From NCBI GenBank assembly GCA_023078555.1, contig CM041196.1, forward strand, positions 248,001 to 312,000: a DNA stretch of 64,000 nt, read 5' to 3'. Every line of letters begins with the position of its first letter. Position 1 is the first letter of the stretch. Under the pieces are notes generated by a model. The model was not told the DNA's origin and did not search any database. It saw only the letters and a list, made by a program, of their open reading frames with translations. The position numbers and the translations under genes are program-made. Below are positions 25,138 through 59,872 of the stretch, piece after piece. Origin of the DNA: Ulva prolifera (lineage: Eukaryota; Chlorophyta; Ulvophyceae; Ulvales; Ulvaceae).

Positions 25138-27278
25138 ATGGGTCCATTAGCTGAGGAGAAATGGTGAGCTCAACACATTGTTCCGAAATTTGGCCCGGAC
25201 GACAGCGTCAACGCAACGCACGCATTCGAATTGAGATGTCAAACTCGTGTCCAGACAACCACAGCGTCAATGTCACGAAAGAACACTTGCGATCCCGACA
25301 AAATGTGTGAAACATGTGTGTGAATGCATTCGGCGGCTGGCAGGAAGGTGCACACTGGTTGGGGCTATAGGAAATCCGATGACTCGTTTTTTGTAGGTGG
25401 GATGCCAACACCGTGGCACTGGTCACCGGCAGCAACAAAGGCATCGGCTTTGCAATTGCACAGCTCTTCGCCGAGCAGGGCATCTCTGTCATTATTGCCG
25501 CGCGCAACGCAGACCTTGGCAACTCAGCTGTCGCCAATCTGAAGAAGGCGGTCCCCGACGCCACAGCGACATTCTGCCAGCTGGATATCACCGACGCAGC
25601 GTCAATTTCAGCCTGCGCCGAGCATGTCCAGCAGAATTTCGGCAAGCTCGACATCCTGGTGAACAACGCGGGTATCGCGTACAAGGGTAACACGTTTGGC
25701 GCGGAGGAGGCAGAGACGACGATCGCCTGCAATGTGAAGGGCACCCGCGCGGTCTGCGAGGCCATGCTGCCGCTCCTCAAGGCGGCCGGCGGCGGCCGCA
25801 TCGTCAACCTCTGCAGCCGGTGCGCCACCTCAGCGTCTCTCATGCCCTGCGTCAAGAGGAGCCCCCCACCGCACACGCAACACCTGCTGCATGTGGGCCC
25901 CCCGCCACCGCAGGAGCGCTGCTGCAGTCCACACAGATAATCGCCCAGAGAGCTGCACAAGGGCGTGCACAAGCACTTGGCTGTGTAAGTCCATGCACCG
26001 GCCAATTGATCCCGTCAGAAGTTGCAACATACCCCAGCAACGCAGTCACCGGCACGAGTACTCTCCCACGCTGCCATGCCACAGCCACTGCTGCCCCGCC
26101 ACGTTTCCACACTCCTCCAACTCTCCCGGTAGACGTCGGACCCCCCCACCCCGCGCCGTGTTGTGTCCATGTCAGCAGAGCTACAGCGTGCTGCGTGCTG
26201 TGCAGGGCGGGCATGCTGCGGCAGCTGAGCTCGCCGGAGCTGCGCGCCGCGTTCGCCGCCCCCGAGTCCGCCGACGCCGTCGCCGCGCTCGCCGACTCCT
26301 ACGTGGACGCCATCCGCAGCGGCGACCACCAGCGCCTCGGCTGGTCGAATTCGATGTACGGCGTCTCGAAGCTCGCAGAGATGTCGTACACGCGCTGCCT
26401 CGCCTCGCAGCTGAAGCCCGAGGCGCGTCCCCCTGCACCCCCCCGCAGCCCGGCCCGCTGTGCCTGGAGCACTTGTGGTAGCACTTGCAAGACCTAGGAG
26501 ACATGCGCATTTGGATTTACAGCTGAGCCGACGGGTATCAACAGACACTGCGCAACAGGCTGGCCATGCATGCGTACATGCGTAGTGGCCGCAGTGCTCA
26601 GTATGTAGTTACAAAGGACAGAGCGCGGGCAGCGAGCCGTGTCTCGGAATCCAGTCGCAAATCCACTCAGTCATGGCACTAGGCCGCGCACGAGCGCGCG
26701 CCATCGCCCTGCCGGTAATTCCAGGCAAGGATTGGAGCCCCGCACGGAGCACACAAGGATTCCCTTTTGCACAAAGCCACACTCAGCGGGCGCAGGGCAT
26801 TCGTCACAAACACAGCACGGTTCACCACACCACACCGAGACGCGACCTCCGCCAGCCGATTCAAGTGATCCATAGCAGGCTGTCCCAAGCGACCATGCGT
26901 CTCATGCGTATGTATATACACAGTAAATATGCATGTAGTTATGTATGCATGCCGTGTATGCGCACGCATCTGCAGAGCATGCAGTGTGGCACAGCAATTG
27001 CGGAGGCCTCACTGCGGCGTCCGTGCCTGCAGCTGACCAGGGCCATCCATGGCGTCCGAGCGTGGACTGCGGAGCCGAGGGTGGGTGCATGCATGCAGGG
27101 CATCGCGGTGTACGGGTGCTGCCCGGGGTACGTCGTGACGGACATGACGAGTGGCCGTGGCGCCAAGACGCCGCCGGAGGGCGCGGACACGCCGGCGTGG
27201 CTCGCGCTGCAGCCCATCGGCAGCATCCCCCAGGGCGGCTTCTTCGGTGAGCGCCAGGAGATCGACTGGGAAGCATAG
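25138..27278 (+). CDS. Short-chain dehydrogenase/reductase, carbonyl reductase/menthol dehydrogenase type
   Basis: Four exons (25138-25163, 25397-25819, 26206-26422, 27099-27278) give 281 aa. NAD(P)-dependent reductase of the classical SDR family; the substrate cannot be read from sequence. Cofactor motif VTGSNKGIG, the LDI site, LVNNAG, the CNVKGT helix, GRIVNL, the catalytic YGVSK, CCPGYVVTDM and the terminal GGFF...IDW are all present and correctly spaced. Exon 1 codes only eight residues plus two bases, but MGPLAEEKWW joins in phase to DANTVALVTG as in plant relatives. The third intron must start with GC (GAG|gcgcgt at 26423) to join KPE to GIAVYG in frame. No transit peptide is seen, so it is probably cytosolic. 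Confidence 0.9.
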
Positions 27279-32190: not shown

Positions 32191-33250
32191 TCACACGTCA
32201 ACCTGCAGCCTGCGTGTGGGCAGCGCTGAGGGTGCCACGGCTGTGCTTGGTGCAGCATGCATGCCGAGCATGCGTTCGAGCGCAACGCGCGCCTGCGCCT
32301 TGGCCTCACGGCACACCGGCGCCTCCCCCAGGTACAGGTCAAACACGGCCTCGCAGAGCTTGGGGCTGTGCACGGTGGCCACGGCCGCGCCGTCCGCCGT
32401 CGCGCACAGGCGGCCGGAGCGCGACCGCGAGAACAGCAGCGCGCTGCCGCGGCGGACGCAGCCACGGCGTGTCACGCCGACGGGCAGCGCGGCGGCGTTG
32501 AAGCAGGATAGGAGTGTCTGCAGGGCGGGGTCGTCCGGGGAGCCGCCGACGGCACGCATGCGGCGGCGGAGGATGCGGCCGTGCTCCGCGCGCAGCATAA
32601 GCAGCGGGAGGTCGCGTGCCGGGCGCACGTAGAGGGACATCGACACGTCTCCTGCTGCAGCGCGGACCTGGCTGGTGAGGCTGGGCTGGGCGGGCGCACG
32701 GGTGCGGACTGCGCTGCGGAGGCCATGCCCTGGTAGCCGCCGGAAGATGAGACGGCGGCGTGACCGTGGTCGCTGTGCTTCTGCGAGAGCTTGTGAGCCA
32801 GCTTCGTGTACACGTGCTGCAGCTGTGTCGTGCAGCTGTGGTGAGGAGAAGGTGGCGGATACGTGGCTGGGATTGGCGTACAGCGCGAAGTCGTAGACCT
32901 TGACTCGGAGAATTCCCTGCCGGTCCCACTTGGGCACGAGGTCCTTGGTCCCTGAGGATACGAGCGTCTGCAAGCGGGAGATGGTGTGTCGCTGCACCTG
33001 TGCTCCAGATGTGGCTGCAGCTCTGACAGATGTGCATGCAGGTGGATGTGGCATGTCACACCTGTGTGCTGCACGGGCTCTCAGCTATGTTGGGCTGCAG
33101 CGTCAGTGGGAATCCTTTTTGGCAGCGCTGGCCAAGCAACGGTCTGTTTGGCTCGATGAACTTCGCTGCAATGAACCTCGAGGCTTGCTCGACACTGCAG
33201 GTGCATCGAAACAGATGAATCACCGATGGGACCCCGGCAGGCATGCCCAC
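32191..33250 (-). CDS. Chalcone-isomerase-fold protein (CHI-like / fatty-acid-binding type)
   Basis: Two minus-strand exons, 33250-33062 and 32997-32191 (donor CAG|gtgtga, acceptor gcacag, phase 0), give about 331 aa. The fold is recognised from the strand ILRVKVYDFALYANP, then DVSMSLYVRPARD, the helix ALQTLLSCFNAAALP, RRGSALLFS, and the family-typical LCEAVFDLYLGEAPVCREA. An insertion of about 60 low-complexity residues after the VYDFALY strand is unusual and might be a retained or misread intron. Bona fide chalcone isomerases need specific active-site Thr, Tyr and Arg residues that I cannot place here, so a non-catalytic plastid fatty-acid-binding or CHI-like protein is more likely. The start (33250 or 33244) is a choice. 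No clear transit peptide is visible. Confidence 0.68.
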
Positions 33251-41172: not shown

Positions 41173-43135
<1,963 letters not shown>

Positions 43136-43760: not shown

Positions 43761-46700
43761 ATGGCGTCCCACAGACAGCAGCAAACATCTCGAGTAGAGT
43801 TTTGGAACTCTATCAAGCCCGATCCCAATTATATCCCAGGACTTGGCCGAGGAGCCCAAGGTTTCACCACCCGATCGGACATTGGGCCGTCCAAGTTCAC
43901 TCCCACCGTTTCCAAATCGGTGAGGTGCCGCCGAAGCTGCCGCAGTACAGTCTGATTGCTCAAGTTGAAACCTTGTGTACCTGTAGAGCAGCCGACCTTC
44001 CTTGGCCTGAACACTGTCGGCTGGGGGGCATGGAGGTCACCAACCCAAGAAGTGGGCAAATCTCCGCTCACCGCTGAGATGTTGTTCATGTGTAGGCTCC
44101 CAAAGAGGAGGATCCTAATGCGCATCAAGAGTTTGATCAGTTCCTGGGGAATGATGCTGGCGCCTTTGCTTATGGTGACTATGATGAGGAGGACAAGGAG
44201 GCCGATGAGGTGTATGCCCAGATAGAATCCGTCATGGACGAGCGCCGCAAGGTAGGGCTACCGCTCATGTTCACCTTAGGTATCCTGGTGGGCCTGCTGC
44301 TGACCTGGCGGCCGTGCTGCGCAAGTGTCGGCACGGCCGCTCGCAACAGCATGCACCTGCCAGTCAGCCTTGTTCCAGCAGCTCCTCATACAACACACAC
44401 CATCAGGCAGTTCTAGAACCATAGAGCAGTGTCCATGGCTGATGGAGGCCTGTTCTGCTGGCCTCGGCGGGCTGTGTTTGCTTGACCCGCTGTCGGCGCC
44501 AGCTGGCGCCAGCGCCACGCTGCACACCTGTCTGCATCGCAGGTGCTCTGCCTATGCAAGCCATTGCCGGCACCTACCACGTCCGCAGAGCTTCAGCCCC
44601 ACGTCCTCTTGCCTCTGCGCCGCCTCCCGCCAGTCTAATGCACCCCACACGCTGCGCTGCAGCACTGCTGTGAAGAGCTGCATGCCCCCGAGCAGCGCCC
44701 AGCCGGCCTGCGCTGTCAGCAGCATGGCATTATGACAGTGTCCGATACTTGCATGTGCGTCGCTCTAGGCGGTGCTGTCCAACTGAAAACAGTTATGCAT
44801 GCATCGAAACTCATGTAGCATGCCGGTAATATTTGATCACACACTTATCCTCACTGAAACGCAATTCGGTGTGTAGTGCACTCTATAACCGGGCCGTGGC
44901 TGCCGCTGCAGCGCTCGCGTGCCTGTATGTCCAGCACTGCCGGACACCGACGTGAAGTGAGATAGCGCACGACCTCATGCAACTGTTCAAGACATGCATC
45001 CGTCGTTCAATCTGCCCCAGCAGCGCACAGCACGCACAGCACGGGGCGCGGCCGGCGGTGCAGGCACAGCGCGAGAAGCGCGAGGAGGAGGCGTCGGTGC
45101 GCTTCCGCAAGGAGAACCCCCTCATCTCGGAGCAGTTTGCGGACCTGAAGCGCGGCCTCGCGGACGTCTCGGAGGCCGAGTGGAAGGCGATCCCGGAGAT
45201 CGGCGACTACACGATCAAGCGGCGCAAGCGCTTCGAGACGTTCAGCGCGAACAGCGACAGCGCGCTCGCGGGCGCGCTCGCGACGGCGACAGGCAACACC
45301 GGCAACACCGCCGCCGGGGAGGCGTCCGCGCCCGGCTTCATGACTGACCTCACCGCCCTCGGCCAGGGCCGGAAGCAGATGCTCGGCGTGAACCTGGACC
45401 GCATGGCGGACAGCGTCAGCGGCCAGACAACGGTCGACCCGACGGGCTACCTCACCTCGCTCAACAGCAAGAAGGTGCGCCCGCCGCGACGCATGCATGC
45501 CTGCTGCACCGCCCCTTCTCCACGAGCAGTCCAGGCGGTGTGTGCGAGGGCACGCGGGAGAGGGTCTATGCATACGGCTGCTGTGAGGCCGGTCTGTGTG
45601 GCGTGGCGGCCGCCCGCACGGCCCTCTGCAGTGTTGCGGATGCATGCCCCCCAAAACACACCCAAGCCACAACCCCCCGGCGTGGTGTGTGCAGGTGAGC
45701 TCGGCGGCAGAGATCAGCGACATCAAGCGCGCGCGCACGCTGCTCAAGAGCATGGTGACGTCCAACCCGAAGCAGGCGCACGGGTGGATCGCGTTTGCGC
45801 GCGTCGAGGAGATCGCCGGCAACCTCAAGTCTGCGCGCACCATCATCGCCGAGGTGCGGCCCCTCCCCTCCTGCAAGCCCCCCCCCCCCCCCCCCCCCCC
45901 CCCGAATAGGAGCACGCTTTGCCGAGCCCGCCTTTCTTCAGTGCACGTGGTGGCTGTGATGGCGCGTGCAGCAGCGGTGTGGGCGATTGGTGCCGCATGT
46001 GAGAAGGCGGCAGTCCAATCGGGGAGCATGGCCCCGCACCGGCACCTGCCACCAGTGTCGCGACTTGTGCCGGCAGCACGGCTGGGCCACACAGGCGTTG
46101 GACAGGCACAGGCCTCGGGCGACACACAGGGTCCGTGAGGGGGGCCCGGGATAAAGTCTCCATCAGATGCGTGACGCCGTGTGAGGCCGCCGTGCAGGGC
46201 ACGGAGGCGTGTCCGCAGAACGAGGACGTGTGGCTAGAGTCGGCGCGGCTGCAGACCCCAGACAACGTGCGCTCCGTGCTCGCCCGCGCCGTGCAGACGC
46301 TGCCGCACAGCGTGAAGCTGTGGCGCCAGGCGGCGCGCGAGGAGCCCGACACGGACGGCAAGCAGCGCGTGCTGCGCAAGGCTCTCGAGCGCAACAGCAG
46401 CAGCGTGGTGCTGTGGAAGGCGCTGGTGGAGCTGCATGGCGAGGCTGAGGCGCGAGCGCTGCTCGCCCGCGCCGTCGAGTGCTGCCCGGACCAGGTCGAG
46501 CTACGCGTCGCGCTCGTGCGCCTCGAGCCGGACTTCACGCAGGCCAAAAAGGTGTGTGCGATGCGCGCTGCCTGCTGTGTGCTGCCTGCTGTGTGCTGTG
46601 TGCTGTTTGCCCGACGCAGCCGGGAGAATCATAGGTCTGCCCACGATCTGTCCGTGGCATGCGTGCTGTGCGCTGCTCTGGAGCCGAGGAACAATGCACA

Positions 46701-49677
46701 TGTCAGTGCGAGGGGTGGGGTGATGCCACGCTGGACTGGAGCTGGGAGGGATCGGGCGGGGTGTCGGCATCCGCCGCGGCTCGTGGCCCAAGACCGCGTG
46801 CAGCTTACCCCGTGTCATCAGGCGGGGGGTGTTGCAACACAGCGGCCCCGTCGCGGCGGCATGTGCGGGTGGCACTGGTGGGCGCGCACACACCACCGCG
46901 CCATAGCGCAATCACGCGAGCCGTTGACGGGCCGGCGCCGCTGCGCAGGTGCTGAACAAGGCGGTGAAGGAGCTGCCGACGGAGCCGGTGCTGCATATCA
47001 TCGCGGCGAAGCTGCAGGAGGCGCAGGGGACGAACCCCGGCATGGTGCGTCGCATCATCAGCCGCGCGATCAAGGACAAGCTGCCCAAGGCGGGCGTCAT
47101 CATCGACCGCGAGACGTGGCTGCGCGAGGCCGAGACGGCGGAGAAGGCGGTGCCGCCGATGGTGGAGACGTGCCGCGCGATCGTGAAGGAGGTCGTGGAC
47201 GTCGCGGTGGACGAGCACGACCGCAGGGACACGTACCACCGCGACGCGGCCGAGTCGGCGGACCGCGGCTGCGTCGAGACCGCCCGCGCCATCCTCGAGC
47301 ACGCCTGCGAGGCCTTCCCCTCCAGCGAGACGTCGTGGCGCGCCGCCGCCGACCTCGAGAAGCGCCTCGGTGCCGCCCCGACATACGCACGCTATACATG
47401 GCATGCATGCATGTGGACAACGCTGACCGCAAGATGCGCGTCAGTGCTGCTGCAGGGGATGCGCGATGCGCTTGCACATTGATAGGCGCCACGGCGACAC
47501 GATTTCCTCACGCCACAGCCGGCGCAGCTGTGGCTAATGCAGCTGCTGTCTCAGAGCTGCGGTGGTGCATTGCATGCAGGCACGTTCGAGACACTGCAGG
47601 GCGTGCTGGGCCAGGCGGTCGCGGCATGCCCGGACTCCGTCGTGCTGTGGCTAATGTACGCAAAGGAGTACTGGCTCGCCGGCAACGTCGCGGCGGCGCG
47701 GACGACGCTTGAGGCCGCGCACCGCCACGTTCCGGAGTCGGAGCAGGTCATGCTAGCGGCGTACAAGGTCGAGTTCGAGAACGGCGAGCCGGAGCGCGCG
47801 CTCGCACTGGCGCTGCGGGCGAAGGAGGTCCTGCCGGAGCCCAGCGCGCGCGTGTGGATGAAGGCTGCCATCGCCGCGCGGGAGCTCGGCCGTACCAAGG
47901 TACTGAAGGCTCCATCGTGCATACATACAGAAGGGGGGGGGGGGGGGGGGGGGGGGCGCCGCCAGCGGCTGCCCATCGACTCCTCCACCTCCTCCACAAA
48001 ATGTCCGTCTCGGCTGTTGGGAGCAGTGTCACCCTGTACAGATATGAGTCATCAGGCGGTCCACTCAGCACTGTGCCCGATGCTGCCCGTGCGACCAAGC
48101 GTCCTCCCCGCGGTGTGCACAGTCTCAGAGCGTGGGCAACGCTGCCACACCGCTCCCCTCACACGTCTGCCCCCACAGCCACCGCCACGGTTGGCCGCGC
48201 TGACCCCAGCGCCGCAATGCAGGAGCAGCGTGCGCTGCTAGAGGAGGGCATCGCGAAGTTCGGCGACGCGCCAAAGCTGCACATGATGCTCGCGCAGCTG
48301 GAGGAGGCCGCGGGCGCGCCCGACGCAGCGCGCGTCGCGCTACAGGCAGGCCTCAAGGCCTCCCCAAAGAGCGTGCCGCTGTGGGTCATGCTGGCGCGCC
48401 TCGAGGAGCGCCAGGGCAACGTCCCGACTGCACGCGCCATTCTCGAGCAGGTGCCCCGTCCCCGCCGCCTCGCCTCCACCTGCCGCCTGAGCTCCGACAC
48501 ACTACACGGTATCAGAATTGCACGCATGGTTGCGCCGCTGTCATGGCCGGCCACCCACGTTACCTGTGGCGCTGCTGGGGTTGTTGCAGCGCCATGCTGG
48601 TGTGAAGGCGTGCAGCGTGGCGGAGGGCAGGAATTTGTGCTGGAGTTTGACGGTATTGCTGTGCTGTAGGCGCGGCTACGGATCCCGCAGTGCCCGGCTT
48701 TGTGGCGGACGGCCGTGCGGACCGAGCTGCGCGCCGGCAACGACGCCGCGGCGGCCGCGGTGCTTGTGCGGGGGCTGCAGGACTGCAAAGACGTGGCGGG
48801 GTCGGGTGGCGTGGGGGCGCTGTGGGCACAGCACATCGCGCTCGCGCCTCGCGCGCAGCGCAAGGGCCGCATGGCGGAGTGCGTGCGGCAGTCGGACGAC
48901 TCGGCCGACATCTTCGCGGCGTTCGGCACGCAGTTCGCGGCAGACCGCAAGTTTGACATCGCGCGGCGGTACTTCCGTCGTGCAACGGCGCTTGACGGGG
49001 ACGTCGGGGATGTCTGGGGCCTGTGGATCGGTGCAGAGACCGCAGACGGCCAGGCCGACAGCGCCGCGGAGGTGCTGGCGGCGGCGCAAAAGGTGCTGAT
49101 CCCGCCTGTACTGGTGTCTGCTGTCCTTGTGACCTGTAGCCACATGCGATGTGCACAACTCCTCGAGCCACAGCAGTGGCCGCGGCACAGGGCCAGGCAC
49201 CTGGAGCAGCACAGCACGGCAGCTGATATTCGTGAGTGTTTGGTGTTTGGGTCGGATGGGACAGGCAGACGATCCCTGCTTGGTCAGGGACTGGCTACAC
49301 CCGGGTGTTGCATCAGTGTTCACCCTGCCAGGTTGTGCTTACATTGGGACGCATGATCGCAGCATGCCCTGTGTGCTACTCAGAGACTGCCGAGCATGAT
49401 CGTAGCTGTCCGCTATCCTCTGCCGGGATTGTGTTCCATGGCGCAAACCACGTGTCATGATGGTAATCCCTCAATTTGCTGCCACGAATATTTGATCTGA
49501 ACGCAAAAGCCCCATGAACTGCCATGAGGTGATGCTGGTACTGTGCAGGCGGACCCCCACCATGGAGAGCGGTGGTGTCAAATACGCAAGAACCCATTGA
49601 ATGCACACAAATCGTTCGAAACTCTGATGAAGCTGTTGGTGGTAGATCTGGAGACTAGGCCAGACAAAGATTTGTAA
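43761..49677 (+). CDS. PRP6: U4/U6.U5 tri-snRNP scaffold PRP6 (PRPF6/STA1), complete, 10 exons
   Basis: Exons 43761-43919, 44096-44251, 45064-45474, 45695-45853, 46198-46551, 46949-47369, 47580-47899, 48223-48450, 48670-49092 and 49549-49677 keep frame and give 919 aa. Exon 1 has the PRP1 N-terminal motif NYIPGLGRGAQGFTTRSDIG; exon 2 ends VMDERRK; exon 3 has DLKRGLADV, IPEIGDY and DSVSGQTTVDPTGYL. Exons 4-10 are a superhelix of HAT repeats (DIKRARTLLKSMV, CPQNEDVWLESARLQ, AVECCPDQVEL, ILEHACEAFPSSETSWRAAA, VLWLMYAKEYWLAGNVAAAR, KASPKSVPLWVMLARLEE, ARRYFRRA). The terminus HHGERWCQIRKN...ETLMKLL matches the family end. It bridges U5 and U4/U6 in the tri-snRNP in the nucleus. Donors are gtgagg, gtaggg, gtgcgc, gtgcgg, gtgtgt, gtgccg, gtactg, gtgccc and gtgctg. 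Exons 3-9 are GC-rich; exons 1, 2 and 10 are near 50% GC. Confidence 0.97.
45878..45903. repeat. Homopolymer run of 26 C
   Basis: Lies 25 bases into PRP6 intron 4, after a C-rich lead-in. Confidence 0.95.
47933..47956. repeat. Homopolymer run of 24 G
   Basis: Lies about 33 bases into PRP6 intron 7, on the coding strand. Confidence 0.95.
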
Positions 49678-50731: not shown

Positions 50732-52196
50732 CTACTCAGCGGTTGCGTATGCGACCGCGTCGGCGACGGCGTTTTCGGCCGCAGACTTGGCGTCAGCCGC
50801 CTTCTTCAGCGCGACCTGCTCAGCCTTCTCCGTCTGCGAGACCAGCTTCTGTGCGTCCTCCTTGCCGGGGCCGATGACGCTCGCCGCGTCCTTCACGGCC
50901 TTGATGCGGGCGGCAGTCGCCTCCTCTGCGGCGGCCTTGGTCGCGGCGGCCGTCTTGGCGAGGTCGTTTGCCTTCTTCTCACCGATTGAAGAGGCATCGC
51001 CGAGCGCATCTGAAGCCTCGGTCTGAAAAGCAGGTCCACAACCAGGTCACCGGCGAAAACATGTGTGCATGGCAGCGGGGCTGCTGTGTCCTTCCGAGGA
51101 GGCTGCAGGGAGGGAGGCCAGAGGGGAGACCAACACCCAGGAGGAGACAAACACGCAGCACAAATATACTGACAAACAGTCTATATTAGAAAACCACAGC
51201 GCAGGACAGCCACACGCTGATGTGTGCCGTGTAATCGTACGGACGCAGTAAAAAAAACTTCTGTTTGTGGTTTGTGGCAAGGCCAGCAAGGCCTGAGATG
51301 CGGATGGAAAACCACAGCGCATGACGGTAGCCAGCCTTGTGGCTCAGAGGTTGTGGCAGCATATGCGCATGTCTGTACTACATAAGTATATGTGCACAGC
51401 CATGCGTACGGCGGAGGGTTGGGGGGGCGCACTGCCTTGGCCGCCTCCTGCTTGGCACGCCCGATGGCCTCGTCAATGCCCTTCTGGGCCCCGGTGACGT
51501 AGCTCTCCTGGGTTGCCTTCTTCAGGGGATCATCAACTGGCGACTGCACACATGCCTTCATGAGGTGGAGCAGCCGAATGCAATTGCAGTTTCCCACTCG
51601 AGGATGTGAGGTGAGAGATGTCGCAAGTCTGAGGCCAATCGCTTGATTGCAGTGCTGTGCAGAGTGATTGGTGTGCTAATTTGGTGTGTTAATTTGCGCT
51701 TGAGTGGTGTGCCAATCGAACTGCTGTAACTAGACTCAGTGGCAGATCCGCTGCTGTCACCGGCACATAAGCTCAAGTGGTGCTTCTGTTAGAGCAGCCT
51801 TGCACGGCACCGGCTTGCTAGACAGTGCTGTCTCAGTACACGCTCGGCCAGCTATCAAAAATGGCAAGTTGCAACGATAGTCGGCGAAAATACTGACACT
51901 GCCATGTGGAAAGAGCCTGCATGATTTTGAACCGAGGTAAAAACGCGTCAGGTAGAGAACTGGCGTAGGCCCCCGATGGTGCTCACCTTGCTATCAAACA
52001 AGTTCTCGATCTTGTTAGCCGCCTTCTCGATGGGGTTCTGTTCCAGAGTGACTGCAGTGGCAGCGTTGCTGAGGACCGCAACCTGCAGCGCAGCTCCGAG
52101 CACCACTGCCGCGGTCTTGTTACGCAGAGACTTCTTCTCATGCGAGGCGCATGCAGCAACAGAGCGGCCGCGGGCTACTGGGGTCTGAGACTTCAT
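50732..52196 (-). CDS. Plastid, probably lumen-targeted, helical protein A (array member 1)
   Basis: Three phase-0 exons (52196-51987, 51543-51433, 51022-50732) give 203 aa; an in-frame ATG two codons upstream (52202) is an alternative start. The N-terminus MKSQTPVARGRSVAACAS is Ser/Arg/Ala-rich with no acid, like a chloroplast transit peptide. Next come a basic patch, a hydrophobic segment (TAAVVLGAALQVAVLSNAATA) ending in an A-x-A type site, and the motif NKIENLFDSK. That motif recurs in the two neighbouring genes. The rest is Ala/Lys/Glu-rich helix (KKATQESYVTGAQKGIDEAI; EKKANDLAKTAAATKAAAEE) ending ADAVAYATAE. There is no twin arginine before the hydrophobic core, so a Sec-type lumen signal or a membrane anchor is inferred. 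No enzyme motif or known family is recognised. The 3' exon is much more GC-rich than the first. Confidence 0.8.
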
Positions 52197-52202
52197 GAAC
52201 AT

Positions 52203-54333
52203 CGTGACGCAGAAGTTTTGGGTGAGGGCTGTAACAGAGTATGAGTATGGAATGCGCGCTGCGTGGTATCGATGCAAGTGTTGTGGCCTTCATTGCGCAC
52301 GAACGGCTATTTACATCGCATCGATCATGAGTACTCATGCTACAACTTTGCGAGCGGGCGAAATTCAGAATTTTTGCCTGTTCGTTTGCGTGTGGCCGCA
52401 CGCCCTCGACTGCGCAAACAGCGTGGACAGGAATTGCCTGCAGCTTTGCCAGCTGCATGGACCACAAATACGCGGATACTCAGATTCTCCACGCCCTAAA
52501 TATGCGTTTCGCGGCTGCATGGATGGTAGTGGTCGTCGTGCCTGGTTTAGTTCAGGCCATGTGCTCGGCATCATCTGGCGCGCGGCTTGATGCATGACCA
52601 TCTTCGAAGAGTGGCGGAGATCAAGCCTTCCGCGGCGAGATCTCGCGACAGAGCGTGGCCTCGCGAACTGCACGTGGCGGTGTCACATGATGATCGCGGT
52701 CACTCTCTCATGAGATCTCATCGCGGGGTCCTTCGTGCGTTGGATTGTCCCGTGGCTAGGTCAACGTTGTGTTCTGGCTCCCCAATGGAGAGTCCCCGCT
52801 GGACTCCCCATTCGTTAGCTGGCACGTGTCCATCGCCTACATGGTGAACAGAAGGGTGCTGCAGCTGTGCGTAGATACGCTGCGACAAGTACAGTCAAGA
52901 TGTGGAGGCAACAAGGCGACGGCACCAGCCGCACTACTGCAACCGCACGTTTGCTGTCCACGTAGCAACCATGAGGTATAGCACATGTACCGTCATCTTC
53001 ACACGGGGCTGGACGTGTGGTGCAGTGACCGGCGTCTACAGAATGCACCATGCCATATGGCAGCGCGACCTCTTGGCACCGGTTTGCAATCTGTCGATGC
53101 CAGTTACTGTACCATGGCAGCGGTGCGCACACTCGTCTGTGACAGCAAGGCAGACATGCCCATCTCTGAGATACGACAAGACTGTCTTCCTGGCACGTGC
53201 CGTACGAGCCACACTGCAGGCCAATTACAGCGAATCCTGCGCGACCAGCGTTGAACCATGTGTCCGCATGCTTGACCCGCGCCACGCAATAGTCGCCACT
53301 TTGACTGTGTACCTCCCCGCAATGGGATCCTTGTGAGCATGCAAAGCTTAAAATAGCTCAGAGGACGCAGCCGTTGACTACATACGCATGTTATCTCACA
53401 GCAACTGCAGATGCAGCCTTCCATAGGAGAGCCTTACAAGTAGCCTGCAGCTGGGTCAGCCTGACCGTTGGCAGTGCAGATCGACTGAAGGAGGATCAAG
53501 CCCAGCTGCCCACAGTGGCAGCCGGGCACCATGTGCAGTGCACCACACCAACTGCTGAGGCATAGGTGGATGCAGCAATGGCACCTGTCAGGCAGATTGC
53601 CACGCAATGCATGCAGCCTCACTGCACGCTCAGTCATATGCAGCAGCTGTGTAGAGGATGGCTGAGAAGGCAGCAGTAGATGTGTGCCTGAGCAACCATG
53701 GCCAGCATTGACCACGTAGCGCTAACACCAAAGACAGCTCCGGCACATGTCCCTGTGGCTGCATAACGTGATGCTGCTTTCCAAAGTGCTCCCCCCCCCC
53801 CCCCCGTCAGGAACCACCACTGCCAACAGCATAACGCACTCTCGACGCCGCCTATTCATGTACCACACAGCACCACATCCCCTGAGCTGTGTCGGGTCAT
53901 ACACACACCTCTTTCAAGCAGCCGAGTTATCGAGCCCTATCGTTCACAACATCCCTCATCTCCTAGGGCTAACGCTACGAGGCGCTGGCCCCGAGACCAG
54001 AACTCCAGCACACTCGCCAGCACCTCTATGCAGATCATCACCCCCGCTGCACAGAAACATCACCGCCTGTGTCCTGCACCTCAGGTGCTGCAAGGCACCA
54101 CCAACGCCACCACGTCTCAGCGGCTGCGCAGCCGCATCTCTCAGGCTGTGTAGCACTCACGTCGCTGAGCAAGCGGCAGGCGGCACACCGCAACCCCCCC
54201 CACAGGCTCCGATGGCGGTGCTCTAGAACTCCGGCGGTGCGCAGGGACAGGCATCACCAGCCGCTGCGAGCAGCGGCCCGCCGCGGCGGCGCCGGCCGCA
54301 AGCGTGTGCGGCCTTGTTACGCGAGGCGCAGGC
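52203..54333. other. Intergenic region within the plastid-protein array
   Basis: Presumed promoter of gene A on its left and 3' flank of gene B on its right. It contains a 15-C run at 53791-53805. Open frames on both strands lack recognisable features. Confidence 0.45.
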
Positions 54334-57300
54334 CTAGCTCGAGGCGGCCTTCTTGGCGCGCTCCTCGGCGAGCTTGCGCATGAACTCCGACGCGCTCGCC
54401 TTGTCCTCCTCCACCTTCTTCGCCGCCTGCGACGCCGCTGACTGCGCTGCGTCCACAACCTCCTGCACGAACGGGTTGGATGTTTGCGTACGAGCGTGCG
54501 AAAGTGAGGGCAACAGATTCCTGTGCATGGAATCCTGCTACTTCGTTCTGCCATGACCGTGCTTAGGGCTGCCACCCAGACAGTAGTCCTGACAAATCGG
54601 GTTTGTTCTATGTGATCGGGCCCGACGACCCGGCACGGCTGCACACCCGCAGCGTGCGTGGCCACCGGCGTCCGCACACCAGAGGCAGTGCCCGTGCGTA
54701 CACACGGCGCGTGCGGGGTGCGCAGCAGCCACAGCGCAGAGCGTGTGGCTGCGGCGGGTGCTTGGTGAACGGGTGACACCCGCATCATCGTCGCAGGGAT
54801 GGCAGCCGGGGTTTGGCGTGTGGCCGTGGCGCCTCCGCTCTGCGTGGCTGTGCGTGCAAGTGAGGGATGGCCGCAGGTGTGAATTAGCATAGCCGTGTTC
54901 CATCCCAGAATTGCGGGGGCATGGCACTGCGGAAGAGCAGAGCACGTCATTGAGCCTGAGCAGAGAAATAGCACTGCCTGAGCACTCGATGGTGTGCTGC
55001 ATGGTGGCGCGAGACCCGGGCGGCAGCTTGTGGGCTGGGTGGTAGATGTATGGACCATTCCGCCGCGGTGGGCGCAGCGACGTCCCCGTCCCGATCAGGG
55101 GACGTTTCCATTCACTAGCGCAGGAGGAGCTGCCGAATGCGGGGTATCCATTGTGGGACATAGAGAGATGAGGGCTGCACACCGCGGCGGGCTGAGCAGC
55201 TTCCTCAGCAGCCTTTGCAGCAGCAGCCTTCACTTCTGCGGCCTTGTCAGCAGCGGCCTTCTCGGCGGCAGCCTTCAAATCTGCGGCCTTGTCAGCAGCA
55301 GCCTTCTCGGCAGCGGCCTTATCAGAAGCAGCCTTGTCTGCGGCAGCCTTCTCAGCAGCAGCCTTCTCGCTCGCTGCCTTGTCAGAAGCAGCCTTTTCAG
55401 CAGCAGCCTTGTCAGCGGCAGCCTTCTCGGCAGCGGCCTTATCAGAAGCAGCCTTGTCTGCGGCAGCCTTCTCAGCAGCAGCCTTCTCGCTCGCTGCCTT
55501 GTCAGAAGCAGCCTTTTCAGAAGCAGCCTTGTCAGCAGCAGCCTTGTCAGCAGCAGCCTTCTCGGCCGCGGCCTTCTCGGATGCAGCTTTATCCTTAGCA
55601 GCCTTCTCGGCCGCAGCCTTCTCAGAAGCAACTTTCTCGGCAGCGGCCTTCTCGGCAGCAGCCTTCTCGGCGGCCGCTTTTTCTGCCTTCGCCATCTCAG
55701 CCGCTGCTGTCTCAGCAGCGCTCTTGTCCGCAGCTGCCTTAGCCTCAGCGGCGGCCTTGTCCGCGGCTGCCTTCTCGGCGGCTGCCTTCTCGGCGGCGGC
55801 CCTCTCGGCGGCCTGCTTCTCAGCAGCCTCCTTGGCCTTTGCAGCTGCCTCCTACACCCCACCAGCACGCCCTTCCATCTGACGTTTGCGCACATGCCGC
55901 GCTCCAGCCACACTGCAGTTGCCTCAGCCACAACGCTTAGCCGAAGAGGGAAGATTGTGCAAGCCATGCCACCTGCGAGGCCCCGACGGTCCCAGCGTAC
56001 GGCTCACACGTAGCCAGGAAAGGCGCTGAACGCTAGCGAGTCCACTACACTGATCTGTGGCGCTGTGTGGTGTGAAGAGTGCTGTAGCAGGCAGTGAAAG
56101 GGAGGGGGGGGGATGGAGGGCGTACGGCCTTGGACTTCTCCTGTGCGGCGCGCTGCTCAGCCTCGGCCGCCTTGCGCTTCAGCGCCTGCTCCTGCTCCCG
56201 CAGCTTCGCCTCTTGCACCGTCTCCTGCTGCGTCAGCTGCTGCAGCACCTTGGCACCCTGTGCCTCCACCTGAACCACTCCGCCTGTCACGCCCGCAATG
56301 CATGGCGCTCCGGCTCGAAGGAGCGCCCGTGAACGCAGCGGCCGGCGGCGTCTCGCGACACCGGTGTTCAGACGTGTGCATGGTGCATGTGGGCCATGAT
56401 ACGTACAGTGAGGCACTGAGGCGCCGCTTTGGCAGAGTAGCACCCCCATGGGGCAGCCGCCACCGGAGAGGCTGCTGTGCACACACGGCCCTGTTGCTTT
56501 GGTTGCGCGCGTGGGCCGGGGTGCCGAAACAGAACATGCGGGGGGCGATTGGATATGCATGCGTAAGATGCGTTGTGACGGGCAGTAGCGGGTAAGGACC
56601 AAAGCAGCGGATGGCGGGGCATGCGCGGGTGTAGGGCGACACTCATGCCTTCTACAGCTGCGGCCCCGGCTAAAGCTTGCGGACATGGGTGCCTCCACGG
56701 GACGGTCGATGCCGCTGCAATTGTGCTTGGCTGTGCGTTTGAGTGTGGCTGGACTGGGTTTTGTGACGCAGTGAGGTGGCGGTGCGGGTGGCAGTGTGGC
56801 ACCTGCTCCAGGGCCTCCCCAAGCTTCTCTGCCTCGGCCGCTGCAGCCTGGGCGGCCTTGTTGTCACCGCGTTTGATCGCACTGTCAACGGCAGCGGTAT
56901 CTTCCTTGATTTTCATTTCAATGCGCGATTCTACGGCGGCAATGTCTTTCTTGACGGCCTGCATTACTGGCGGGCCGTTGCTTTTCGGACACAAAGCCGG
57001 CGAGACTTAGTCACCGGTCTCGGTCTCGATCGCGATTCGCGGCCGTGGGGTCCGCACAACTCACAGGGCTGCGTTGATGGCGACACGAGGTTGGAATGTT
57101 GTGTACTAGTGTCTCATTACGTGATCATCGACCAGCGTCAGATGTGCATATCTGGAACGAGTGGAACGCTTCGACCTGCCACCGGCTTGCTGTGAGACGA
57201 TTTGGTGGCGTCGGGCCGCATCCTGCACTGAAGGTACAACAAAATGTAGCAGGTGCAATTTTCATGCAAGAAATGCGCGGCATTGCGGAGCTCAAGACAC

Positions 57301-57784
57301 AGGGTGTTGCCCGGGTATTCGCAAGCACAAGATTCGATTGACTCGAGTGCATATGTGAGGAACGCAAAGTCACGCAGATGCAGCCCATCCAATAGAATCA
57401 GCCAAAAAAATCGCGTGTCATGTTGTGTTAAACTCGATGACGTTGTGATTGCGTTGCGGCATGGTCTGGGGCGTGGGCTGCGGCACGCGAGGCATGCGAT
57501 CTCACCTCTTCCTTGCCTTTCGCAGTTGCCTTCGCTGCGTTCATCTGTTGCTCCAGCAGGTACTCTAGTTTTGATGACTGGGCTTCATATGCTTTTTTCT
57601 GCTCCTCAACTTTTTCTGTGAAAGACGCGGCATCGGCCGGCCCGCCACTAGCGACAGCTACCGCTGCTCCCATACCCAGCAGCACCATCGCGCCCTTTTG
57701 AATCGGCGTCTTCTCACCCTTCGCGGCACATGGTGTAGCCAGACGCCTTGTACCACGGGTCGGCTGAACGCTGAAAGACTTCAT
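54334..57784 (-). CDS. Plastid, probably lumen-targeted, Ala/Lys-rich repeat protein B (array member 2)
   Basis: Five phase-0 exons (57784-57506, 56958-56803, 56269-56126, 55851-55183, 54462-54334) give 458 aa. The transit-like N-terminus [20 protein letters not shown] is followed by the hydrophobic core [22 protein letters not shown]. The mature start [20 protein letters not shown] then aligns ungapped with gene C (10 of 20 identical). Exons 2 and 3 are charged helix ([40 protein letters not shown]). Exon 4 is 223 codons, mostly KAA[AS][DE] pentads. The last exon ends ERAKKAASS. The long Ala-Lys-Glu helix recalls LEA-like or TolA-like spacer helices by composition only. Function is unknown; membrane protection or a rigid spacer are guesses. 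Exon 4 contains a 120-base internal duplication. Confidence 0.8.
54566..54630. repeat. Degenerate dispersed repeat, copy 2
   Basis: 80% identical to 6365-6429 over 65 ungapped bases, in the same orientation. It lies in intron 4 of gene B. Confidence 0.6.
55298..55520. repeat. 120-bp tandem duplication inside the pentapeptide exon
   Basis: Bases 55298-55400 are identical to 55418-55520 (103 bases). With the diverging remainder the unit is 120 bases, or 40 codons, exactly eight pentads, so the frame is preserved. The surrounding exon is built of 15-base units. Confidence 0.9.
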
Positions 57785-59554
57785 GGTAAACATTTTGGAA
57801 CAAGTGAACACTGAGACCACGTTCAAATCGCACTTTCGATGCCGCTACTCACGCATCGCAGTCCTCCAGATATTGGAAACTCTACAAACTTCCGCATGTA
57901 TAAGCATGTTGTGCTGCTTCGCTGCCGTGTGATTGGCAAGCGTGCCAAAACCTCGACATGCATGCGTTGTGGTACCACACACAGTCGTTGCCCTGGCAGG
58001 GCTTCATGGGCATGCAATGGCAAACTGCCGGAAGAAGTTGGAGTAATCATGTTCTGCGTCTTAAAGTCTATACATTTCCACGACTTGTGTCTGGTAGTGG
58101 TTTGGACGCAATTGCAATCATGCTAGCGTATTGTTTGCTCGTTTTGTGACAGACGCAGGTGTGTCATGGGCGCTGACTCGATTACGAAACCAGTGACTGC
58201 GCAATCAAGACAACAATGTACTACAGTGGTAGCTATTGGAACGCTTTGACCACCATCGCATGATGTCGCTGCTGGGCTGGTAGCAATTTGCTGGAGGTCT
58301 GTGTTTGTAGTCAGACCATCGCAACAGGATGCACGGACGTACCAATCTTCCAGGAGCCCGTGGACATCTGAAGCTCCTGCGCAATCGTCGGAATTTGGCG
58401 GTGAGATTGCACATTGTTGATTACACAATGGCTTTGTACTTGCTGTATTCAGCCTGGTCAATGACCATGGAGATGGATGGCAATGCACAACTGCTGCACA
58501 CGTGCACAGCATACTTACAGGCAGTGAACTGTCTGTACGTGGACAAATCAATGGCTGTGGGACTCTTTCTTTATTTAGACATGTGGAGCGGTGGGCCTTT
58601 CGTCAACATGTCGACATGCGTAAAATTGGCAGTGTGGATTCATGGTGCATGCACAATCCCTATCATCTTTCACCTCGATCAGTCGGATCAACTCGACCTT
58701 ATACTGTGTAAGCAGTTGGTGAACACAGCAGTGGTCATTTGCATAGTGCATAGCATTGTGTGACACCGATATGGGCCCTGTGATTGAGAACAGGAGACAT
58801 TGTCATTTGTTTCTACTCAGATGATTGGTCGGGAGTGTGTGGTACAGTAGTCTACAAGTCTCGTGCTTAAATGTTGAACCATGAATGATTTCGATGGTCA
58901 AAAGCATGCAACCTTAAGCATCAGACATTTTTTAATATGGAAGCACCATTTTCCAGCCGCCACAGACTGCCCCAACATCGTGTACAGTATTATTACTCAG
59001 ATGATTTGTACTCATCATAAACCACGTCCTCTTTCACCATTGTACAATCTCAGGATGATCATTCGGGCATGCACATTTCAAGGACATTCATTACGAAACC
59101 ACATGCAAGGCAAAAGCCACCTGATATATCATTCTGGCGACAACCAATGAGGTAAAATATTTGTGCTTGAATGGCAGGAGCAACGACTGCATGCTACACA
59201 TACAGGAATGTCGATCTCTGTGGTCTGATCTGTTCCAAGGCAAGGCACGACGACCACATCATGTCAAACCCACGAGCAAACGGATAGCTGAAAATTAAAA
59301 CAGCATCTTCGCGACAGCTTTATCAACAAGATTCATGGGATCCGATTCAGTAAATATCTTGCATCTAAACGCTGTCCAGTGTCGGAATGAGTCACCCCGG
59401 GTTGACACAGGCGAGACCATCGATGCCAACTGTCGTTACACAAAAAATGAAGAGGGTCCTTCTCCTCGTACTGGTACCATTGTTTACTTGCACTGACTCA
59501 GACTACCTACGGAAAATTGTGCAGCGGGAACCCCGTTGCTCTCAGGCCACAAGT
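57785..59554. other. Intergenic region within the plastid-protein array
   Basis: AT-richer DNA between the gene B start and the gene C stop. No further array member with a hydrophobic signal segment was found on either strand. Confidence 0.45.
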
Positions 59555-59872
59555 CTAGTTCACGGCCTCCTCCACCGTGCTGGCGGCTTTTGCAATCACC
59601 TTTTGCGACTTCTTGATCTCTTGATCGAAGATCTTCTCCAGCTTCGACAGCTGCAGCGCCTCTGCGTCTTTCTTCGCTTGTACCTTGGCCGCGAAGTCGC
59701 TGGCATGGCCCATGGGAGGCACGGTCAGGAGCACTGCGCTGGCTGCCCCGAGAACCATCATGCGGACTTGAGACGCTTTAAGGGCTGATGCTTGCACGGC
59801 AGACCGGTTGCTGGCGCATGCCCGGACGGGCGCCGCTGCCACGAAAGACCGTTGTGTGCAGAAGGAGTTCAT
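59555..59872 (-). CDS. Plastid, probably lumen-targeted, short helical protein C (array member 3)
   Basis: Single-exon gene of 105 aa. The N-terminus MNSFCTQRSFVAAAPVRACA is transit-like. The hydrophobic segment VRMMVLGAASAVLLTVPPMG ends at GHA before SDF. The mature part is one charged helix (FAAKVQAKKDAEALQLSKLE, then KIFDQEIKKSQ) ending STVEEAVN. It aligns ungapped with the mature N-terminus of gene B and shares the [SN]K[LI]E-x-[IL]-[FL]-[DE] motif with genes A and B. It is thus the minimal form of the family: a targeting region plus one helical module of about 50 residues. The ATG at 59872 matches the start context and length of its paralogues; a longer upstream frame (to 60013) looks like 5' UTR and promoter. 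The absence of introns distinguishes it from A and B. Confidence 0.8.
   Translation of the reverse strand: MNSFCTQRSFVAAAPVRACASNRSAVQASALKASQVRMMVLGAASAVLLTVPPMGHASDFAAKVQAKKDAEALQLSKLEKIFDQEIKKSQKVIAKAASTVEEAVN

What the first reader, a model, noticed from the sequence alone, without database searches (positions are those of the whole stretch)
50732..59872. Same-strand array of three related plastid/lumen-type helical proteins of very different size
Genes A (203 aa), B (458 aa) and C (105 aa) are consecutive, all on the minus strand. All three have a transit-like N-terminus, then a hydrophobic segment with an A-x-A type end, then a charged helix carrying [SN]-K-[LI]-E-x-[IL]-[FL]-[DE] ([24 protein letters not shown]). 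B and C align ungapped over 20 residues at the predicted mature N-terminus (10 identical). I know of no named family with this layout. They look like one module duplicated and then expanded with Ala/Lys/Glu-rich helix, perhaps a lumenal or membrane-surface structural or stress-protective set.
Basis: partly seen in the sequence, partly recalled or inferred. Interest (0 to 1): 0.8.

Follow-up and report, generated by a model that had tools for sequence, protein, structure and literature searches.

The report
Three tandem chloroplast helix-protein genes
A seaweed genome carries three neighbouring, apparently related genes whose products look as if they are sent into the inner compartment of the photosynthetic membranes as long helical rods, perhaps to protect those membranes when the alga dries out at low tide; function is untested.

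Summary
Three consecutive minus-strand genes read as 105 (C), 461 (B) and 205 aa (A). The genome is a green alga: its mature plastocyanin matches PDB 7pcy at 98 of 98 residues (recalled as Ulva prolifera). Each protein has a basic presequence, hydrophobic stretch and A/G-x-A end, like that alga's plastocyanin. B and C are homologous in the mature part (0 of 5000 shuffles). A is linked only through its presequence, to B (15 of 6000 shuffles; plastocyanin controls negative); its mature part is not significantly similar. No Pfam, NCBIfam or PDB relative passed a cut-off. B's exon 4 codes A-A-[ED]-K-A pentads that vary mostly at third codon positions and is modelled as one 217-residue helix. Best reading: a tandem set of thylakoid-lumen helical proteins working like COR15/LEA dehydration protectants; location and function are inferred. 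No algal proteome was searchable, so how new or widespread the set is stays open.

The parts
59555..59872 (-). Gene C, single exon with stop codon, 105 aa
   Evidence: GC3 0.74
59702..59872 (-). C presequence, residues 1-57: basic N-terminus, hydrophobic 38-54, G-H-A end
   Evidence: KD17 1.76; 5 K/R and 0 D/E before the core
59558..59701 (-). C predicted mature helix, residues 58-105 (48 aa, no Gly or Pro)
   Evidence: composition; AlphaFold2 helix 57-104, block-mean pLDDT 66-88 over residues 61-105 (whole model mean 60.2)
59624..59647 (-). C motif SKLEKIFD
   Evidence: alignment
57506..57793 (-). Gene B exon 1: presequence plus module shared with C
   Evidence: B-C mature homology 0 of 5000 shuffles
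57629..57793 (-). B presequence, residues 1-55, ending A-D-A; similar to that of A
   Evidence: A-B 15 of 6000 region-keeping shuffles
57551..57574 (-). B motif SKLEYLLE
56803..56958 (-). B exon 2, modestly amphipathic segment (52 aa)
   Evidence: moment reached by 28 of 2000 shuffles
56126..56269 (-). B exon 3, charged segment (48 aa)
   Evidence: not significantly amphipathic, 307 of 2000
55183..55851 (-). B exon 4, 223 aa, pentads A-A/S-[E/D]-K-A
   Evidence: TRF period 15, 41.3 copies; codon-position test; AlphaFold2 single helix 2-218, mean pLDDT 90.1
54334..54462 (-). B exon 5, C-terminal charged segment with stop codon
51987..52202 (-). Gene A exon 1: presequence (residues 1-50, A-T-A end) plus NKIENLFD
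51993..52016 (-). A motif NKIENLFD
   Evidence: mature similarity to B or C not significant
51433..51543 (-). A exon 2
50732..51022 (-). A exon 3, Ala-rich segment (96 aa) with stop codon
   Evidence: helical moment reached by 26 of 2000 shuffles

Best explanation
A tandem set of nuclear genes for thylakoid-lumen proteins that are little more than helix: C about 48 mature residues, A about 155, B about 406. Shown by sequence: B-C common ancestry, A-B presequence similarity, lumen-type presequences, helix-forming composition, protein-level conservation of B's repeats. Inferred: import into the chloroplast, export across the thylakoid membrane (probably by the Sec route, as A and C hold no Arg-Arg before the core and B's lies some 17 residues ahead of it), cleavage at the A/G-x-A site, and a role as LEA/COR15-like protectants. 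In that role the modestly amphipathic segments (A exon 3, B exon 2, perhaps C) would lie on lumen-side galactolipid membranes or on exposed lumenal proteins when the lumen loses water, while the non-amphipathic pentad rod of B (217 residues, about 32 nm) would act as a soluble spacer or shield that keeps membranes and proteins apart. Scarcity of glycine suggests that they may be helical even when wet.
For: Gene models with GT-AG sites in one phase; B-C homology, reciprocal best genome matches 1.8 kb apart, A-B presequence link with negative plastocyanin controls, two-member profiles that rank the held-out third first among non-members. Photosynthetic green alga: 38 LHC matches; plastocyanin 98 of 98 identical to 7pcy. 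Presequence layout like that of the alga's plastocyanin. Ala/Lys/Glu-rich, Gly 0 of 48, 4 of 406, 7 of 155; no Trp or Cys. Helix models for C and for B exon 4. Pentad units vary mostly at codon position 3 (228, 154, 923 pairwise differences; Lys 28 of 28, acid 27 of 28). Analogy: COR15A/B, a tandem pair of chloroplast proteins classed with LEA_4, GRAVY -0.55 and -0.54, neither above the Pfam gathering threshold (PMC2292704, passages); raising COR15A helicity improves membrane stabilisation in vitro (PMC6468432, abstract and passages). Ulva is exposed to drying at low tide (PMC3749462, passages) and its lumen is proposed to shrink on drying (PMC3764160, passages; the authors' inference for Ulva pertusa).
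Against: No expression, localisation or stress data. No LEA model matches the proteins; the genome-wide LEA_4 search was empty but uninformative, as nothing rang in the controls either. GRAVY -0.44 to -0.66 is milder than many LEA proteins tabulated in PMC2292704. B's main helix is not amphipathic (1986 of 2000 shuffles reach its moment), and the shared module is not significantly so (647 and 500 of 2000); the positive segments are modest and ten were tested. Of the differing codon pairs in B's repeats 599 are synonymous and 440 are not. A's mature part is not demonstrably homologous. The neighbourhood is housekeeping as far as looked at and says nothing about function.
Confidence: 0.4

Rival explanations
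1. C, and by extension the N-termini of B and A, are small thylakoid-complex subunits: the hydrophobic stretch is kept as a membrane anchor and the conserved helix binds a photosystem; A and B carry grown tails.
For: C resembles in layout known small subunits with one membrane helix, such as PBA1 of Chlamydomonas (99 aa, 36-residue predicted transit peptide, 63-residue mature part with one predicted helix, co-migrating with PSII; PMC8730698, passages). Hydrophobic stretch KD17 about 1.8.
Against: No similarity to any chain in the PDB for C, A, the first 196 residues of B and the three-row profile, apart from two chance hits for B at E 0.73 and 1.8, although the PDB holds many green-lineage light-harvesting chains (seen). 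The stretch is Ala-rich and ends in a consensus cleavage site like that of plastocyanin; a 406-residue tail would be odd for a subunit.
Confidence: 0.17
2. Only B and C are paralogues; A is an independent lumen-targeted helical protein, similar through shared presequence style and Ala/Lys/Glu bias.
For: A's mature part does not score above shuffles against B (2363 of 5000) or C (603 of 5000); the B+C profile finds A at E 0.011 with the next, unrelated frame at 0.057; A exon 1 finds no relative in the genome.
Against: A-B presequence match 15 of 6000 region-keeping shuffles, while the three plastocyanin comparisons give 848, 1849 and 4140 of 6000; same strand, neighbouring, same intron phase, MKS near the start of both.
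Confidence: 0.25
3. The proteins go elsewhere (mitochondrion, secretory path or stroma), so the 'lumen' reading is wrong.
For: No targeting predictor could be run; layout was judged against one in-genome control only.
Against: Basic, acid-poor N-terminus ahead of the hydrophobic core in all three, as in the alga's plastocyanin; A/G-x-A ends.
Confidence: 0.15
4. Artefact: the repeats of B are a neutral minisatellite and the exon chains are wrong.
For: Exon 4 is a 15-base tandem array; no transcript evidence was available; splice sites were chosen by hand to keep the frame.
Against: Third-position variation dominates among repeat units; each of the six introns holds at least one in-frame stop.
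Confidence: 0.05

Closest known systems
COR15A/COR15B (classed with LEA_4, Arabidopsis chloroplast)
   Same: Tandem gene pair, plastid-targeted, hydrophilic, helix-forming, neither above the Pfam LEA_4 gathering threshold, similar GRAVY (PMC2292704, passages)
   Different: COR15A is stromal, has seven glycines and is disordered when wet (PMC6468432, passages), whereas these have a lumen-type signal and little glycine; one member here has about 406 mature residues; sequence relation to COR15 was not tested
LEA_4 (PF02987)
   Same: Charged, Ala-rich helix
   Different: No match; B exon 4 has period 5 residues, not 11
Single-helix Ala/Glu/Lys rods (designed (KAAAE)n peptides; TolA middle domain), recalled
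   Same: Pentad with Lys and acid 4 apart; long uninterrupted helix
   Different: Pfam (E up to 1) and NCBIfam (E up to 0.1) list for B only hits under their cut-offs: Extensin_1, HC2, RNR_N and a histone-H1-like model; plastid-type presequence
PBA1-type small PSII-associated proteins
   Same: Size and layout of C (PMC8730698, passages)

Membership tests
LEA_4 / group 3 LEA | Match to Pfam LEA_4 above cut-off | tested here: not met
   no LEA family at E up to 1 for A, B or C; genome-wide search empty but uninformative (controls silent too). PMC2292704 itself keeps COR15A/B in the group without such a match
LEA_4 / group 3 LEA | 11-residue repeats | tested here: not met
   B exon 4 self-identity peaks at offsets 5 and 10 (0.69, 0.67), not 11 (0.35); period 15 bases. 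Not tested for A and C
LEA_4 / group 3 LEA | Induction by water loss; disordered when wet, helical when dry | not testable with these tools
   no expression or spectroscopy data; AlphaFold2 gives helix but does not speak to drying
Hydrophilins | High glycine content and strong hydrophilicity (glycine named in PMC2292704; thresholds recalled) | tested here: not met
   Gly 0 of 48, 4 of 406, 7 of 155; GRAVY -0.44, -0.66, -0.48 (C, B, A)
Thylakoid-lumen proteins | Bipartite presequence: basic acid-poor part, hydrophobic core, A-x-A-type end | tested here: met
   side by side with the alga's plastocyanin; sequence layout only, C has G-H-A
Thylakoid-lumen proteins | Found in the lumen | not testable with these tools
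   needs import assay, proteomics or tagging
One paralogous family A+B+C | Significant similarity between members | tested here: inconclusive
   B-C mature met (0 of 5000); A-B presequence met (15 of 6000); A mature to B or C, and B-C and A-C presequences, not met
PBA1 | Sequence similarity to Chlamydomonas PBA1 | not tested
   its sequence was not held; only the paper's description was seen

The most novel reading that the evidence does not exclude
A dedicated lumen 'strut and shield' system: helical proteins of graded length (about 7, 23 and 60 nm if fully helical) made from one anchor module, of which the pentad rod of B holds thylakoid membranes or lumenal complexes at a distance when the lumen of an intertidal alga collapses on drying.
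Probability: 0.1. Interest if true: 0.7.

Novelty: new variant of a known kind. Interest (0 to 1): 0.4.

Why it matters
LEA-type protectants are known from the stroma and other compartments; the Arabidopsis LEA survey consulted here has no occurrence of 'thylakoid' or 'lumen' in its main text (PMC2292704), and I know of no lumenal one. The lumen is proposed to shrink when Ulva dries (PMC3764160). If these proteins act there, they would give a testable protein basis for desiccation tolerance of thylakoids in intertidal green seaweeds, and a natural long (KAAAE)-type helix with a known address.

Tried and rejected
Tried without result: PDB sequence searches for C, A, B's first 196 residues and the three-row profile (two chance hits for B at E 0.73 and 1.8). 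Pfam and NCBIfam: for B Extensin_1 (E 4.3e-13, 49.9 bits, cut-off 105), HC2 (5.6e-6, under cut-off), RNR_N (0.52) and a histone-H1-like model (0.09), read as low-complexity or chance; for A HrpB2 (0.085, under cut-off), chance. Viral contigs (268 pattern matches, 0 relatives) and prokaryote genome contigs (152 pattern matches, 0 relatives). More members next door: a profile search of the window plus 30 kb of flanks gave nothing better than E 0.43. Further genome paralogues: besides B-C and the contig-6 match, nothing better than E 0.7. Rfam (gathering threshold) and tRNA scans of the window were empty. DNA similarity between the gene blocks: below E 0.01 only B-A, in the helix-coding exons (best 84% over 38 bases), taken as composition. 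Literature: in the listings (20 of 282 listed; 20 of 21; 20 of 60) I saw no paper on such a set; titles and abstract openings only, except for the papers cited from passages. One search (genome size) found no paper, none on this genome. Fold search was not run because a lone helix matches anything. Rejected: secondary-plastid host (the N-termini do not read as signal peptides by eye; plastocyanin points to Ulva).
Full report
WHAT WAS CHECKED. The three genes were rebuilt by hand from the minus strand. C is one exon (59872-59555, 105 aa). B has five exons (57793-54334, 461 aa). A has three (52202-50732, 205 aa). All six introns are GT-AG and all exon boundaries are phase 0; the sites were chosen to keep the frame, so this agreement is partly by construction. 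Each intron holds at least one in-frame stop, and G+C at codon positions 1, 2, 3 is 0.61/0.44/0.74 (C), 0.71/0.51/0.65 (B) and 0.65/0.48/0.77 (A). There is no transcript evidence.

ORGANISM. The window lies at G000:C1:248001-312000 of an 88.9-Mb genome in 44 contigs. It is photosynthetic (38 LHC matches). One LHC frame of the 38, compared with the PDB, has green-lineage LHCII chains among its best matches; two longer 9vfj chains, by length polyproteins, score above them, the first with two matched stretches added up (60 of 100 matches shown; organisms of those entries are mostly recalled). The plastocyanin gene found in the genome codes a mature protein identical at 98 of 98 residues to PDB 7pcy; I recall 7pcy as Enteromorpha (Ulva) prolifera. 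So this is Ulva prolifera or a close sibling, an intertidal seaweed.

ARE THEY RELATED. B and C: the mature parts score 54 against a shuffle maximum of 52 (0 of 5000), the whole N-terminal regions 77 against 63 (0 of 5000). Their presequences alone do not match (921 of 5000; 1385 of 6000). In the whole genome each is the other's best non-self match, 1.8 kb apart, at E 0.017 and 0.031. Against this: a second match for C, on contig 6 with two stops inside and covering mainly the presequence, has E 0.0186, and searches with the mature parts alone retrieve only themselves. If the best match were random, it would fall within 10 kb of the query with a chance of about 2 in 10,000 (arithmetic on genome size). 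A: its presequence matches that of B (3 of 5000 plain shuffles; 15 of 6000 shuffles that keep basic and hydrophobic parts apart), not that of C (1164 of 5000; 1376 of 6000). Plastocyanin, a generic lumen signal of the same alga, does not match any of them in the same test (848 with B, 1849 with C and 4140 with A, of 6000), so the A-B link is not just signal style. A's mature part shows nothing significant (603 of 5000 with C, 2363 with B). Profiles built from two members, presequences included, and run over 2257 frames of the window plus 30 kb of flanks rank the third first among non-members: C at 6.6e-7, B at 1e-4, A at 0.011, the last with an unrelated frame at 0.057 close behind. No further member was found in those flanks or in the genome.

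TARGETING. All three start with a basic stretch (5-7 Lys/Arg, 0-1 acid residues before the core), then a 17-residue hydrophobic core (KD 1.76-1.81), then GHA, ADA or ATA. Plastocyanin of the same genome gives 1.94 and ANA. This is the layout of a bipartite lumen presequence. No predictor was available and no location is shown.

THE MATURE PARTS. All are charged, Ala-rich and poor in glycine (0 of 48, 4 of 406, 7 of 155 in C, B, A), with no Trp or Cys. AlphaFold2 with an alignment of C and the first exons of B and A models C as a helix from residue 57 to 104, with block means of 80 and 88 around the conserved motif, the residues before 57 nearly all below 50, and a whole-model mean of 60.2. B exon 4, folded alone, is one helix of 217 residues with mean pLDDT 90.1 (five models 75.2-90.1), about 32 nm at 0.15 nm per residue (recalled). 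Confidence values for single helices of this composition say little beyond helix propensity. The array has a 15-base period. In the 28 in-register units examined (140 codons of the 223-codon exon, chosen as the regular part), Lys is kept in 28, the first Ala in 28 and an acid in 27; pairwise differences by codon position are 228, 154 and 923, differing codon pairs are 599 synonymous and 440 not (mostly Ala/Ser and Glu/Asp positions), and 19 distinct units occur as DNA. The pairs are not independent events, but the pattern is that of a protein under selection rather than of a fresh minisatellite. The pentad places Lys and acid four residues apart, as in the helical (KAAAE)n peptides (recalled), and has no hydrophobic face: 1986 of 2000 shuffles reach its moment. 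B exon 2 (28 of 2000), B 56-196 (8 of 2000), A exon 3 (26 of 2000) and A 51-109 (23 of 2000, at 87.5 degrees, off the ideal helix) are modestly amphipathic, C 58-105 is borderline (101 of 2000), and C 58-90 (500), B 56-96 (647), B exon 3 (307) and B exon 5 (177) are not; ten segments were tested.

FAMILY. Pfam and NCBIfam give nothing for C, one chance hit under cut-off for A (HrpB2, E 0.085), and for B only hits under cut-off, of which Extensin_1 (E 4.3e-13) and HC2 (5.6e-6) fall on the repeats and are read as low complexity. No PDB chain matches C, A, B's first 196 residues or the profile, save two chance hits for B. This does not show that the family is new: no algal proteome or metagenome was searchable here. 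Viral and prokaryote contigs gave no relative.

FUNCTION. Likeliest is a role like that of COR15A/B, a tandem pair of chloroplast proteins classed with LEA_4, of comparable GRAVY and below the Pfam gathering threshold (PMC2292704, passages), where more helix means better membrane stabilisation in vitro (PMC6468432, abstract and passages). Ulva experiences drying at low tide (PMC3749462, passages), and authors working on Ulva pertusa propose that the lumen shrinks then (PMC3764160, passages). The step from helix to protectant is inference; LEA_4 (Pfam match, 11-mers in B) and hydrophilins were tested and not met, so this is 'works like', not 'is a'. The main functional rival is a small membrane-anchored subunit such as PBA1 (PMC8730698, passages), which could not be compared by sequence. 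The neighbourhood gives no functional clue: of 108 open frames of 150 aa or more, ten were searched and six matched Pfam (PRP1 N-terminus, two TPR frames, RPN11 C-terminus, chalcone-isomerase-like, short-chain dehydrogenase).

VERDICT. Real, coherent, probably a tandem-duplicated set with no name, of moderate interest; location and function untested.

Noticed in passing
window 44956-48238: Plus-strand frames with PRP1_N and TPR repeats: a Prp6-like splicing factor gene next to the array.
   Followed up: partly
window 41176-41751: Minus-strand frame with the RPN11 C-terminal domain of the proteasome lid.
   Followed up: no
window 32194-33084: Minus-strand frame matching Chalcone_2 (chalcone-isomerase-like, E 3.2e-7).
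   Followed up: no
window 25383-25937: Plus-strand frame of a short-chain dehydrogenase (adh_short, E 2.7e-34).
   Followed up: no
L026 1327-1719 and L025 1513-1680: Plastocyanin gene whose mature product equals PDB 7pcy at 98 of 98 residues; used to identify the organism and as presequence control.
   Followed up: yes
L012 6068-6664 and 7114-7764: Minus-strand frames that look by eye like a RETICULATA/DUF3411 plastid envelope protein (recalled); not searched.
   Followed up: no
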